64,000 nucleotides of DNA from Arthrobacter globiformis (GTDB lineage: Bacteria > Actinomycetota > Actinomycetes > Actinomycetales > Micrococcaceae): the NCBI RefSeq assembly GCF_030815865.1, contig NZ_JAUSXI010000001.1, positions 4,154,001 to 4,218,000 of the forward strand, read 5' to 3'. The translations under genes and the position numbers were made by a program. Positions 18,405 through 23,138 of this stretch are shown in pieces; positions within the stretch are counted from its first letter, which is position 1; each line of letters begins with the position of its first letter. The notes below the pieces were generated by a model, which did no database searches, was not told the origin of the DNA, and was given only the letters and a program-made list of their open reading frames with translations.

Positions 18405-19119
18405 ATGGACCCGGAAAAGGACCCGAGCAAGGACGCTCACGGGGGCCGGAGCGACCACGTGTCCGGCGGGGACGGCCCGTCTGGCGGCACGGCCAAGGCC
18501 GCCGCCATGGCAGGTGCCAAAGCCTGAGCTCCACCCCGAGCTGCTGACCCCCGGCACGCCTGGACAGGAAGGCCCGGGACAGGAAAGCCCTGGAAAGCCA
18601 GGCACGGGCAAGGCCCGCAAGGGAACCGCGGGCGCACAAAAGCAGGGCGAAGGAAACCAGAAGCAAACCGGCTTCCCCCAGCCCAGCCCCGTCTTCGACC
18701 CGTTCGCCCGTGACCGCGAGCGCGACGCCGCGGCGCGGAAGAAGCGGTCCCAGCGCCGCACGGTGGTGGTGGGCCTCGGCGTCACGGCGCTCCTGGCCGG
18801 CACCATCACGGCGATCGTGGCCAGCAACGAGCAGGACCCCGACTACGCCCAGGTCTGCTTCAACGACGAAACGGGTGAGCGCGTCGAGGACACCCAGTGC
18901 AACAGCTCGGCCGGACGCGGCGGGGCCCTCTATGCCTGGTACTTCTATGCGCGCGGCGCCAGCGTCCCGGGCCTTGGCCAGAACAGGACGGCCTATCCCA
19001 ACTTCACCAGGACGGTGCCGCAGGGGGCCAAGACGTCCACGGGCTACAGCAGCAAGGGCGGCACAGTCAGCCGGGGCGGCTTCGGCAGCAGCTCCAAGGG
19101 CGGAAGCACGGGAGGCTAG
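18405..19119 (+). CDS. YgiB-like (DUF1190) protein with apparent frameshift
   Basis: Translation starts well at ATG 18405 after AGGGGGAA, giving a hydrophilic segment MDPEKDPSKDAHGG that stops at 18525-18527. The same protein continues in the next frame from about 18522 to 19119. Dropping one A from the AAA at 18519-18521 joins them into 237 residues. Alternatively GTG 18514 starts the second part. The protein has a disordered N-terminal region, a helix RTVVVGLGVTALLAGTITAIV, a Cys-bearing extracytoplasmic part and a Gly/Ser tail with SRGGFG, like the end of E. coli YgiB. The YgiC-like gene follows after two bases. Confidence 0.6.
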
Positions 19120-19121
19120 GA

Positions 19122-20342
19122 GTGAAGCGGTTACTTTCGGAGCCCCGGCCGGACTGGAAGCAGAAGATTGAAGAGCAGGGCCTGGTGTTTTCCACCACCA
19201 CCCTGCCCGGCGGCAAGAAGATCGAGTACTGGAATGAGGCCGCCTACTACGAATTCACCATGGACGAGGTGGAGGCGCTCGAGGTCACAGCCGAGGACAT
19301 GCACAGGATGTGCCTGGAAGCCGCAAAGTTCCTGGCCACGGGCGCCATGGGCCCGATCGGCATCGGTCCGCAGGCGCTGGAACTGGCCGCCGAGTCGCTG
19401 CAGGCCGGGGACGTGGACATCTACGGCCGCTTCGATTTCATCTATGACGGCCAGGGCGGCGCCGCCAAGATGCTCGAGTACAACGCGGACACTCCCACCG
19501 GCCTCATCGAGGCGGCCGTGGCACAGTGGTTCTGGCTGCAGGACGTCTTCCCGGAGAAGGACCAGTGGAACGGGATCCACGAGGCACTGATCCGGCAGTG
19601 GAAGAAGCTGCAGTACCGCACGGGGATGAGCACGCTGCACGTGGCCCACTCCGAGGCCGAAGAATCTGGCGAGGACTGGATGACGGCCGCCTACATGCGG
19701 GACGTCGCCGGCCAGGCCGGGTGGACCACCATCGGCATCAACATGTCGGACATCGGCTGGGACCCGAACCTCAAGCGCTTCGTGGACATGGACAACTTCA
19801 TGATCAGCACGATCTTTAAGCTCTACCCCTGGGAGCTGATGATGAAGGAGCCCTTCGGCCACCGCCTGCTGCAGCGCTCGCACAATCCCCGCTGGGTGGA
19901 ACCGGCCTGGAAAATGCTGCTGTCCAACAAAGCCCTCCTGGCCGCCCTCTGGCACCTCTACCCGGACCACCCGAATCTGCTGCCCGCGTACCTCAATGAT
20001 CCGGGCCCGCTGCGGGAATGGGTGGCCAAGCCGCTGCACGGCCGCGAAGGCGACAACATCCGGATCCATGCGGAGGGCATCAGCCTGGAGAAGCCGGGCG
20101 GATACGGCCGCGAAGGCTGGTGCTACCAGCAGTACCACTCCCTCCCCGACTTCGACGGCAACCACCCGGTCCTGGGCCTGTGGGTGGTGGACGGTGAATC
20201 GGTGGGTTGCGGCATCCGCGAGTCCGACGGGCCGGTCACCGATTATTTCTGCCGCTTCGTCCCGAACACCATTGACGCGCCGGCGCCGCTGAGCGCCCAG
20301 GCGGCACAGGCCAACGCGAACAAGGCAGGTATTGCGCTATGA
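19122..20342 (+). CDS. glutathionylspermidine synthase-like ATP-grasp ligase (YgiC-like)
   Basis: About 406 residues, the length of the single-domain YgiC/YjfC group that lacks the amidase domain of Gsp. Key blocks are GRFDFIYDGQGGAAKMLEYNADTPTGLIEAA near residues 105-135, and the ATP-grasp C-terminal part running from GREGDNI through GYGREGWCYQQY to GCGIRESDGP and YFCRFVPN. It should form an amide bond between a carboxyl and an amine using ATP. GGAGG lies six bases before GTG 19122. Actinobacteria of this group use mycothiol and not glutathione, so the real substrates are probably not glutathione and spermidine. It is coupled to the YgiB-like gene and an amino-acid/polyamine permease. Confidence 0.85.
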   Translation: MKRLLSEPRPDWKQKIEEQGLVFSTTTLPGGKKIEYWNEAAYYEFTMDEVEALEVTAEDMHRMCLEAAKFLATGAMGPIGIGPQALELAAESLQAGDVDIYGRFDFIYDGQGGAAKMLEYNADTPTGLIEAAVAQWFWLQDVFPEKDQWNGIHEALIRQWKKLQYRTGMSTLHVAHSEAEESGEDWMTAAYMRDVAGQAGWTTIGINMSDIGWDPNLKRFVDMDNFMISTIFKLYPWELMMKEPFGHRLLQRSHNPRWVEPAWKMLLSNKALLAALWHLYPDHPNLLPAYLNDPGPLREWVAKPLHGREGDNIRIHAEGISLEKPGGYGREGWCYQQYHSLPDFDGNHPVLGLWVVDGESVGCGIRESDGPVTDYFCRFVPNTIDAPAPLSAQAAQANANKAGIAL

Positions 20343-20355
20343 AAACAGGTGCCAA

Positions 20356-21879
20356 ATGAGAACCCGAACGACAACGACGGCCGGCGGCGCCGGGGGCCAG
20401 CCTGGCGGTGCCGTCCCCGGCAAGGGGCTCCGCGCCGGGATCCTGGACCTCGGTGACTCCGTGATGCTGGGCCTCGCCTCCACCGCCCCGGTGTACTCGC
20501 TGGCCGCGACGCTGGGGCTGATCGTGGCCGTCAACGGTAATTACACGCCACTGATCCTGGTCCTGGGATTCATTCCCGTGCTGTTCATCGCCTACGCCTT
20601 CCGCGAGCTCAACAGTGCCATGCCGGACTGCGGCACCACCTTCATCTGGGCCCGCCGCGCTTTCGGCCCCTGGGCCGGGTGGCTGGGCGGCTGGGGCGTG
20701 GCCCTGGCCGGCGTCGTGGTCCTGGCCAACCTGGCCCAGGTGGCGGGCCAGTACCTTTGGCTCCTCATCGGCGACGGGTCGCTGGCGGGAAACAAGGCGG
20801 TGGTGACGGCCACCGGCGTCGTTTTCATCGCTTTCATGTCCATGGTCAACTACCGCGGGATCCGGCTGGGTGAGCACGTCCAGCGCACCCTGACGTACGT
20901 GCAGTACATTGCGCTGGGCATCTTTGCCGTGGCCATAATCCTTCGCATCGCCGGCCTGACCGGCGGGGCGCCGGCGGGCCAGCCGTTCGACATCGAATGG
21001 TTTAACCCGGCCGGGGCGTTCGCCGATCCCGGCGCAGTGGTCCACGGCATCCTGCTGGCCCTCTTCATCTACTGGGGCTGGGACACCTGCCTGGCGGTGA
21101 ACGAGGAAACCGAAAACCCTGCCACCACACCGGGCCGCGGGGCGGTGATCTCGGCTTTCGTGCTGGTGGCCATCTACGTCTCGGTGGCGTTGCTGGTAAT
21201 GATGTACGCGTCCGTGGGAACAGAGGGAATCGGGCTTGCCAACGCTGAAAACCAGGACGACGTGTTCCTTGCGATGAAGGACGTGGTGCTGGGTCCTTGG
21301 GGCTGGCTGATTGTGGTGGCAGTGCTCGCGTCCGTGCTGTCCTCCACCCAGACAACCATTCTGCCCACCGCCCGCGGCACCCTGTCCATGGGTGTACACC
21401 GGGCCCTGCCGCCGAAGTTCGGGGAGGTCCACGAGCGGAACCAAACCCCCGGCTTCTCCACTCAGGTGATGGGCGCGGCCGCGGTCGTGTATTACGTGGC
21501 CATGAGTTTCCTCAGCGAGAACCTGCTGTCCGATTCCATCAGCTCCATCAGCTTGTTCATCGCTTTCTACTACGCCCTCACCGGCTTTGCCTGCGCCTGG
21601 TACTTCCGGGACACTCTCCGGGCATCGGGCCGCAACCTGTGGTTCCGCGGCATCCTTCCGCTGCTCGGGGCCCTGCTGCTGACCGCGGCGTTCTTTATCT
21701 CTGCGGCGCAGATGTGGGATCCGGCCTACGGGAACACGCAGATATTCGGCGTGGGCGGGGCCTTTGTCAGCGGCGTGGTGCTGCTGGCCTTGGGCTTGGT
21801 GCTGGCCGCGGTCTGCCGGTTCCTGCCGTCAACCCGCGGATACTTCATGGGCGGGACGCGGGTTCCTGCGGACCGGTAG
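20356..21879 (+). CDS. APC-superfamily amino acid/polyamine permease
   Basis: 507 residues with about twelve membrane helices after a 30-residue Thr/Gly-rich cytoplasmic tail. LDLGDSVMLGLASTAPVYSLAATLG resembles the first APC helix, and WGWDTCLAVNEETENPATTPGRGAVIS the conserved loop after helix 6. It imports an amino acid, amine or related solute by proton symport or exchange. ATG 20356 lies 13 bases after the ligase stop; a six-codon frame spans the gap with ATGA at both ends. Its place in the operon suggests that it supplies a substrate of the YgiC-like ligase or exchanges its product. Confidence 0.88.
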   Translation: MRTRTTTTAGGAGGQPGGAVPGKGLRAGILDLGDSVMLGLASTAPVYSLAATLGLIVAVNGNYTPLILVLGFIPVLFIAYAFRELNSAMPDCGTTFIWARRAFGPWAGWLGGWGVALAGVVVLANLAQVAGQYLWLLIGDGSLAGNKAVVTATGVVFIAFMSMVNYRGIRLGEHVQRTLTYVQYIALGIFAVAIILRIAGLTGGAPAGQPFDIEWFNPAGAFADPGAVVHGILLALFIYWGWDTCLAVNEETENPATTPGRGAVISAFVLVAIYVSVALLVMMYASVGTEGIGLANAENQDDVFLAMKDVVLGPWGWLIVVAVLASVLSSTQTTILPTARGTLSMGVHRALPPKFGEVHERNQTPGFSTQVMGAAAVVYYVAMSFLSENLLSDSISSISLFIAFYYALTGFACAWYFRDTLRASGRNLWFRGILPLLGALLLTAAFFISAAQMWDPAYGNTQIFGVGGAFVSGVVLLALGLVLAAVCRFLPSTRGYFMGGTRVPADR

Positions 21880-21917: not shown

Positions 21918-23138
21918 ATGAGCAATGACGCCCTTGATCCTGTGGAAGCCCCGGCCGAGTACGGGCTCCCGGACCCTTCGGATGTGCTGGCGCTGGACTC
22001 CCTGCTGTCCTCCGATGAACTGGCCCTCCGGCAGCGGATCAGGGACTTCACCGACCAGCAGATCCGGCCCGACATCGCGGACTGGTACGAGCAGGGTGTC
22101 TTCCCCCTGCACCTGCCCGCTCAACTGGGCGAGCTGGGCCTCCTGGGCATGCATCTGGAGGGCTACGGCTGCCCCGGCCGGTCCGCCGTCGAGTACGGCC
22201 TGGCCGCCATGGAGCTGGAGGCCGGCGATTCCGGAATCCGGACGTTCGTCTCGGTCCAGGGGTCGCTGGCGATGAGCGCCATCCACAAATGGGGCTCGGA
22301 GGACCAGAAACAGGAGTGGCTCCCCCGGATGGCCGCCGGCGAGGTGATCGGCTGTTTCGCACTGACCGAGCCGACGGCGGGCTCGGACCCGTCGTCGATG
22401 ACCACTACTGCGCGGCGGGACGGGTCCGGCGAGGACGCCGGCTGGGTCCTGGACGGCGCCAAGCGGTGGATCGGGCTTGCCTCCGTGGCCGACATACTGG
22501 TGGTCTGGGCGAAAACCGACGACGGCGTCCGCGGCTTCCTCGTGCCCGCCGGCACGGCCGGCGTCACGGCCACGCCAATCGGGCGGAAACTGTCCATGCG
22601 CGCCTCGATCCAGTGCGATGTGGCGTTCGACGGCGTCCGGCTGGGTCCGGAGGCGCAGTTGCCGGGCGCCCTGGGACTGAGTGGCCCGTTCAGCTGCCTC
22701 AACGAGGCCCGATACGGCATCGCCTGGGGTGCCATGGGCGCAGCCAGGGACTCCTATGAGGCGGCGCTGCGGTATTCGATGGAGCGCCTGCAGTTCGGCA
22801 AGCCGCTGGCCGGCTACCAGCTGACGCAGGAGAAGCTCGTGAACATGCTCCTCGAGATCCAGAAGGGCACCATGCTAGCCCTGCACCTGGGCCGGCTCAA
22901 GGATTCCGGGCGGCTCCGGCCCGAACAGATCTCGCTGGCCAAGCTGAACAACGTCCGCGAGGCCATCAAGGTGGCGCGGGAAGCCCGGACCATCCTGGGC
23001 GGCAACGGCATCACGCTCGACTATTCGCCTCTGCGGCACGCCGCCAACCTCGAATCGGTGCGCACTTACGAAGGAACGGACGAGGTGCACACACTCATTC
23101 TGGGCCAGCACATCACGGGGCTCCCGGCGTTCCGCTGA
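21918..23138 (+). CDS. acyl-CoA dehydrogenase, glutaryl-CoA dehydrogenase-like
   Basis: 406 residues with the three acyl-CoA dehydrogenase regions in order. CFALTEPTAGSDPSSMTTTARR is the flavin/substrate signature near residue 150. EARYGIAWGAMGAARDSYEAALRYSMERLQFGKPLAGYQLTQ and ILGGNGITLDYSPLRHAANLESVRTYEGTDEVH follow. The Glu of TYEGTDE near residue 385 is placed like the catalytic base of glutaryl-CoA dehydrogenase. That enzyme oxidises and decarboxylates glutaryl-CoA in lysine or tryptophan breakdown. Function is inferred from motifs; isovaleryl-type activity is less likely. Confidence 0.87.
   Translation: MSNDALDPVEAPAEYGLPDPSDVLALDSLLSSDELALRQRIRDFTDQQIRPDIADWYEQGVFPLHLPAQLGELGLLGMHLEGYGCPGRSAVEYGLAAMELEAGDSGIRTFVSVQGSLAMSAIHKWGSEDQKQEWLPRMAAGEVIGCFALTEPTAGSDPSSMTTTARRDGSGEDAGWVLDGAKRWIGLASVADILVVWAKTDDGVRGFLVPAGTAGVTATPIGRKLSMRASIQCDVAFDGVRLGPEAQLPGALGLSGPFSCLNEARYGIAWGAMGAARDSYEAALRYSMERLQFGKPLAGYQLTQEKLVNMLLEIQKGTMLALHLGRLKDSGRLRPEQISLAKLNNVREAIKVAREARTILGGNGITLDYSPLRHAANLESVRTYEGTDEVHTLILGQHITGLPAFR

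What the first reader, a model, noticed from the sequence alone, without database searches (positions are those of the whole stretch)
18405..21879. YgiB-YgiC-APC permease operon likely makes an unknown amide conjugate
A DUF1190-like membrane protein, a glutathionylspermidine-synthase-fold ATP-grasp ligase and an amino-acid/polyamine permease are packed within 2-14 bases of each other. The ligase lacks the amidase half of Gsp. Actinobacteria of this kind are known to use mycothiol, so glutathione is an improbable substrate. The trio suggests import of an amine or amino acid and its ligation to an unidentified acid or peptide, perhaps at the membrane. That is a plausible undescribed pathway in this organism (inference).
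Basis: partly seen in the sequence, partly recalled or inferred. Interest (0 to 1): 0.75.

Follow-up and report, generated by a model that had tools for sequence, protein, structure and literature searches.

The report
Amide ligase, glycine-tailed partner, amine permease
A soil actinobacterium carries a three-gene operon that probably takes up an amine of the polyamine type and joins it by an amide bond to an acid, possibly the conserved glycine tail of the small membrane protein encoded next door, which would be a new kind of protein modification if true.

Summary
The trio is real: YgiB-like membrane protein (18514-19119, start uncertain), YgiC-type ATP-grasp ligase (19122-20342), APC permease (20356-21879). 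The ligase's best solved relative is E. coli YgiC, annotated peptide--spermidine ligase, so the chemistry has precedent. Glutathione is unlikely: MshC is present and no GSH-S_ATP match was found. No spermidine-synthase match either, which fits amine import. In 118 actinobacterial ligase loci the YgiB-like partner is in 116 by HMM, the other two by eye; an APC permease is near 38 and DUF350 near 28. New observation: 116 of 116 partners end in Gly or Ser, 110 in GG/GS. The 13 proteobacterial partners read end in Gly or Ser and 5 of 5 phage DUF1190 proteins in GG. The ligase's ribosome-binding site does not explain this. As the ligase family activates peptide C-termini, this tail may be the acid substrate. 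Against: the partner is probably exported while the ligase is cytoplasmic, and 10 of 47 viral partners end in Ala or Glu.

The parts
18405..18527 (+). 40-codon reading frame from ATG; in the nearest relative this peptide is the N-terminus of the YgiB-like protein
   Evidence: no Pfam hit
18514..19119 (+). YgiB-like membrane protein, 201 aa from GTG 18514 (in-frame GTG 18304 and 18385 are alternatives)
   Evidence: partner of 116 of 118 ligases by HMM; DUF1190 only at E 0.22
18760..18825 (+). hydrophobic membrane anchor after a basic stretch; no lipobox Cys here, although a lipobox-like motif matched in 66 of 96 less similar relatives
   Evidence: sequence
18856..18900 (+). two cysteines (C115, C129), invariant in the 24-sequence alignment A2
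19072..19086 (+). RGGFG tail motif
   Evidence: shared with E. coli YgiB/YjfM
19111..19116 (+). C-terminal Gly-Gly, the proposed acid (acceptor) end
19122..20342 (+). YgiC-type ATP-grasp amide ligase, 406 aa; R103, D105, E119, N121, D123, K303, R366 invariant in A1; DTPT signature (residues 123-126) as in YgiC/YjfC
20356..21879 (+). APC-family permease, 507 aa, proposed amine importer

Best explanation
The operon encodes a YgiBC-type amide-forming module. The ligase uses ATP to make an acyl phosphate on a C-terminal carboxylate and lets an amine of the polyamine type attack it. The APC permease brings that amine in. The partner found beside the ligase in nearly every locus, the YgiB-like protein, carries the most likely carboxylate on its conserved C-terminal Gly-(Gly/Ser), so the product would be a membrane-anchored protein with a polyamine-capped tail, made before the tail crosses the membrane. 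Shown here: the gene trio, the ligase family, the intact family-conserved residues, the near-constant pairing with the YgiB-like protein, and the constraint on its C-terminus. Inferred: enzymatic activity, amine identity, transport direction, and the tail as substrate.
For: Best solved match of the ligase is E. coli YgiC (7uk8, E 8.3e-79), with the DTPT signature of YgiC/YjfC rather than the DSAS of GspS/TryS. E. coli ygiB-ygiC and yjfM-yjfC have the same gene pair and RefSeq names both ligases peptide--spermidine ligase. GspS phosphorylates the C-terminus of glutathione before amine attack (passage in PMC6272389). Partner beside 116 of 118 ligases by HMM, two more by eye. C-termini: 116 of 116 end Gly/Ser (GG 84, GS 26, SS 3, FG 3). 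In 57 representatives position -2 is Gly in 53 and position -1 is Gly/Ser in 57, while position -3 is Gly in 11; of 1429 other predicted genes in the same loci 2.4% end GG/GS. With no gene starting within 20 bases downstream, 12 of 14 representatives still end GG/GS, with GGC/GGT codons. 13 of 13 proteobacterial partners read end in Gly or Ser; 5 of 5 phage DUF1190 proteins end GG. Amine side: no Spermine_synth match; homologous permeases stand beside carboxynorspermidine-synthase-like genes in 13 of 19 loci read (3 scanned), and a paralogue in this genome stands beside agmatine-deiminase- and N-carbamoylputrescine-amidase-like genes.
Against: The partner's tail should end up outside the membrane (basic residues before the anchor; lipobox in many relatives), while YgiC is listed as cytoplasmic. 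Partner tails are rich in Gly and Ser anyway (0.42 and 0.29). In viral loci 10 of 47 representatives end in Ala or Glu, 4 of them Glu. All polyamine-gene matches beside permeases are below the curated cut-offs. 6 of 19 non-operon permease homologues have no such neighbour. The window's own YgiB-like gene has a frame difference in its N-terminal part. No enzymatic data for any actinobacterial member were seen.
Confidence: 0.45

Rival explanations
1. The ligase makes soluble peptide- or amino-acid-polyamine conjugates, as reported for E. coli YgiC/YjfC in vitro. The YgiB-like protein is a membrane sensor or scaffold whose Gly-rich tail docks to the ligase without being modified. The permease imports the amine.
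For: RefSeq names of the E. coli enzymes. The partner's exported topology and Gly/Ser-rich tail. Ala or Glu at the end of 10 of 47 viral partners.
Against: Docking alone does not explain why the last two residues are more constrained than the third-last, nor why 12 of 14 tails keep GG/GS when nothing follows.
Confidence: 0.35
2. The permease is an exporter or exchanger, or only a neighbour, and has no metabolic tie to the ligase.
For: It is near 38 of 118 ligases only. 21 of the 40 closest homologues in 197 family genomes lie away from a ligase (places compared by eye). One recruitment is not rejected (p-AU 0.49), so repeated independent recruitment is not shown.
Against: It is adjacent in Micrococcaceae, Actinomyces timonensis and, in the order permease-ygiB-ygiC, in a Curtobacterium, although the permeases differ down to about 28-30% identity. 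On two annotated plasmids ligase and permease genes overlap by 4 bases. APC and DUF350 do not occur together, apart from one short fragment hit.
Confidence: 0.15
3. Ordinary glutathionylspermidine chemistry.
For: The Pfam family is named for it.
Against: No amidase half, no GSH-S_ATP match, no Spermine_synth match, MshC present; the table of PMC12506659 cites Sui et al. 2012 that YgiC lacks GspS activity (passage).
Confidence: 0.03

Closest known systems
E. coli ygiB-ygiC and yjfL-yjfM-yjfC (peptide--spermidine ligases YgiC/YjfC with DUF1190 proteins YgiB/YjfM)
   Same: Ligase homologous over its whole length, DUF1190-type partner immediately upstream, partner ends in GG with an RGG[FY]G motif.
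   Different: The E. coli yjf operon has DUF350, PspA-family, DUF2170 and DUF2491 genes; here an APC permease follows the ligase, and no DUF350 match was found in the genome. The partner here is not recognised by Pfam DUF1190.
PspA / CesT-Tir / GspS-like ATP-grasp operons (Ravi et al. 2024, PMC11237479; passages and section 19 read)
   Same: GspS-like ATP-grasp with DUF1190 lipoprotein and DUF350; polyamine link already proposed there.
   Different: The section read names no APC permease and no C-terminal Gly constraint on DUF1190; none of the PSP genes it lists is in the trio.
Bifunctional glutathionylspermidine synthetase/amidase GspSA and trypanothione synthetase
   Same: Same ATP-grasp ligase fold family, detectable by profile.
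   Different: No amidase domain; DTPT instead of DSAS; no GSH-S_ATP match in the genome.

Membership tests
YgiC/YjfC-type peptide--polyamine ligase | full-length GSP_synth domain without amidase | tested here: met
YgiC/YjfC-type peptide--polyamine ligase | closest solved relatives YgiC then YjfC; DTPT motif; family-invariant residues kept | tested here: met
YgiC/YjfC-type peptide--polyamine ligase | ligation of a peptide to spermidine or another amine | not testable with these tools
   needs enzymology
DUF1190 (PF06693, YgiB/YjfM) | Pfam gathering score | tested here: not met
   12.3 bits against 22; none in own genome at E<=0.001
DUF1190 (PF06693, YgiB/YjfM) | gene next to the ligase, membrane anchor, RGGFG...GG tail | tested here: met
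DUF1190 (PF06693, YgiB/YjfM) | profile-profile similarity over the whole protein | tested here: inconclusive
   53% probability, tail only
GspSA (glutathionylspermidine synthetase/amidase) | amidase domain and a glutathione supply | tested here: not met
   NCBIfam PRK10507.1 97.5 bits against 882
PspA-linked yjf-type operon | DUF350 gene in the operon or genome | tested here: not met
PspA-linked yjf-type operon | PspA or band-7 partner in the genome | not tested
   not searched genome-wide
APC polyamine transporter | AA_permease_2 domain | tested here: met
APC polyamine transporter | transports a polyamine | not testable with these tools
   context only; no NCBIfam equivalog reached its cut-off

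The most novel reading that the evidence does not exclude
YgiC/YjfC-type ligases are protein-tail modifiers: they amidate the C-terminal Gly/Ser carboxylate of the DUF1190/YgiB-like protein encoded beside them with a polyamine, giving a polycation-tipped membrane protein, with ubiquitin-like use of a C-terminal GG but by ATP-grasp chemistry. In Micrococcaceae an APC permease supplies the amine; phages carry the tailed protein, the ligase, or both.
Probability: 0.35. Interest if true: 0.87.

Novelty: new variant of a known kind. Interest (0 to 1): 0.6.

Why it matters
YgiC/YjfC-type ligases and DUF1190 proteins are found in many bacteria and phages, but the acid substrate of the ligase is an open question. 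A tail constrained at its last two residues, encoded beside an enzyme family that activates peptide C-termini, makes the question directly testable by mass spectrometry in E. coli. If true it would be a polyamine modification of a bacterial protein's C-terminus and would tie polyamines to envelope proteins. The replacement of DUF350 by an amine-type permease also points to what the module needs.

Tried and rejected
Glutathionylspermidine: rejected. Shine-Dalgarno explanation of the GG tail: the ligase start is 2 bases downstream in the window, so the Gly codons could be a ribosome-binding site; one search splits by distance and 12 of 14 distant cases keep GG/GS without GGA/GGG codons. Limits: I entered the distances for the external proteins by hand, the Halomonas one as a guess, and L128 (FG) may have DUF350 close behind it. 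Independent recruitment of the permease: first suspected from the quick tree, not supported by the AU test (p 0.49), so not claimed. The fragment hit to the permease HMM in L164 was set aside as spurious. Carboxynorspermidine synthase was searched in the own genome and not found, but this model rang in only one control genome and below its cut-off, so the search is weak. One of the 15 plasmid loci, Azospirillum L265, showed no annotated partner, and phage DSS3_VP1 showed none in the stretch fetched. The whole-library lists show only the best 120 of 1002 and of 772 proteins; 117 GG, 2 GS and 1 other of 120, and 120 GG of 120, all close relatives.

Literature: searches. None of the listings showed a C-terminal modification of YgiB/DUF1190; Pederick 2023, Sui 2012, Li 2019 and Iyer 2009 are not held and were not read; what I know of their abstracts is recall.
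Full report
What is there. The window carries, on the + strand, a YgiB-like membrane protein ending at 19119, a ligase at 19122-20342 and an APC permease at 20356-21879. A MOSC-domain gene lies upstream on the other strand and an acyl-CoA dehydrogenase follows downstream. The genome is a single contig of 5.11 Mb; the nearest named relatives of the ligase are Arthrobacter and Pseudarthrobacter. The domain is read in another frame, and in the nearest relative L038 the two are continuous.

The ligase. It is a full-length GSP_synth protein without amidase. By sequence its closest solved structures are E. coli YgiC and YjfC, then trypanothione synthetase, then GspSA. It has DTPT where GspS and TryS have DSAS, as YgiC and YjfC do. 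In an alignment of 18 actinobacterial members R103, D105, E119, N121, D123, K303 and R366 do not vary; that some of these are the ATP- and metal-binding residues of GspS is recall. In E. coli both homologues are annotated peptide--spermidine ligase and follow a DUF1190 gene. PMC12568646 (passages) calls them peptidylpolyamine synthetases, citing Pederick et al. 2023, which I could not read.

The host. MshC matches over its cut-off and no GSH-S_ATP match was found, so glutathione is improbable. No Spermine_synth match was found; a carboxynorspermidine-synthase search was also negative but weak. If the amine is spermidine it would have to come from outside; putrescine could come from agmatine, since agmatine-deiminase-like and N-carbamoylputrescine-amidase-like genes are present (L249; both below their curated cut-offs).

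Neighbourhoods. GSP_synth occurs in 39 of 197 genomes of the family and 26 of 396 of the phylum. I surveyed 118 loci, 38 from unnamed family genomes (37 of the 39 hits outside the window's own, plus split hits fetched once each) and 80 named actinobacterial ones. By HMM the YgiB-like partner is in 116 (L062 and L063 have it by eye), an APC permease near 38 (39 with one spurious fragment), and DUF350 near 28; 52 have neither in range. DUF350 was confirmed by Pfam in 3 of 3 scanned. Permease and DUF350 do not occur together apart from the spurious fragment. In a Curtobacterium the order is permease-ygiB-ygiC. On plasmids of Pseudarthrobacter sp. BIM B-2242 and Arthrobacter caoxuetaonis the ligase and permease genes overlap by 4 bases. 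The permease is thus a real but accessory partner, at the place that DUF350 takes elsewhere.

The permease. It is one of 25 AA_permease_2 matches in the genome, and no NCBIfam equivalog reaches its cut-off. In 197 family genomes 40 close homologues stand apart from the rest (E 2e-139 or better); by comparing places, 19 lie beside a ligase and 21 do not. I read 19 of those 21 neighbourhoods: in 13 the next gene is of one family, of which three members scanned match carboxynorspermidine synthase over full length at 155-180 bits, far below the equivalog cut-off of 800. In 6 there is no such gene. A paralogue in this genome (42-45% identical) lies beside the agmatine genes. This points to polyamine-type amines but does not prove it. 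One origin of all operon permeases is not rejected (p-AU 0.49).

The tail. The YgiB-like proteins vary greatly (mean column identity 20% in A2) yet keep two cysteines, a GFG-type motif and the C-terminus. Of 116 complete partners 84 end GG, 26 GS, 3 SS and 3 FG. In 57 representatives, including bacterial DUF1190 proteins from other phyla, position -2 is Gly in 53, position -1 is Gly in 38 and Ser in 19, and position -3 is Gly in 11. Of 1429 other predicted genes in the same loci, 2.4% end GG/GS; this control still holds a few unrecognised partners. The Gly codons might be the ligase's ribosome-binding site, but where no gene starts within 20 bases 12 of 14 still end GG/GS with GGC/GGT codons. 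E. coli YgiB and YjfM and 14 plasmid-borne partners end GG (11), GS (4) or CG (1); one further plasmid locus showed no annotated partner. Five phage DUF1190 proteins end GG; beside four phage ligases the partner ends GG, GG and AG, and none was seen in the fourth. In 80 viral ligase loci 61 have a lipobox plus tail-motif gene on the ligase strand; 47 representatives end in Gly (22), Ser (15), Ala (6) or Glu (4). So the rule is strict in the bacteria sampled and looser in viral contigs.

Mechanism. GspS first phosphorylates the C-terminus of glutathione and then lets spermidine attack (passage). A ligase of this family whose near-constant neighbour carries a constrained C-terminal Gly/Ser suggests that this tail is the acid. 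The difficulty is topology: the tail should be outside. Modification before export would solve it; NCBI names for Arthrobacter homologues ('Tat pathway signal protein') are at least compatible, since Tat exports folded proteins (recall). The rival is that the tail only docks to the ligase. I give the tail-substrate reading 0.35 and the broader module reading, with the tail as the most likely acid, 0.45.

Verdict. A YgiBC-type module with an APC permease in place of DUF350: a new variant of a known kind. The C-terminal constraint is, as far as the searches listed go, not described, and makes the open question of the ligase's acid substrate testable.

Noticed in passing
window 18405-18527 / 18514-19119: The YgiB-like gene shows a frame difference from its nearest relative in the Pro-rich N-terminal part; real frameshift or sequencing error cannot be told. 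Intact copies exist in relatives.
   Followed up: partly
window 21918-23138: An acyl-CoA dehydrogenase follows the permease here and a related gene is downstream in 13 of the surveyed loci; in E. coli an acyl-CoA-dehydrogenase-family gene, aidB, follows yjfC. Possibly coincidence.
   Followed up: no
phage records: 142 phage-collection records match YgiB (E<=0.1) and 136 match YgiC; the listed host genera differ: Klebsiella, Erwinia and Cronobacter lead for the first, Acinetobacter, Aeromonas and Pseudomonas for the second, so some phages may rely on the host ligase.
   Followed up: partly
L261:3396-3893, L262:3271-3774: YgiB-like partners are annotated 'tRNA-dihydrouridine synthase' in RefSeq-derived plasmid records, and 'Tat pathway signal protein' elsewhere; the first looks like a misannotation.
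   Followed up: no
L261:6700-7527: A potassium-channel-family gene follows the permease on the Pseudarthrobacter plasmid, as an ion channel does in the Rhizobium operon.
   Followed up: no
L129, L131, L132, L136, L140, L147, L151, L153 upstream of the ligase: Micromonospora partners are very short lipoprotein-like proteins whose tails end Cys-Gly-Gly, resembling the end of glutathione.
   Followed up: partly
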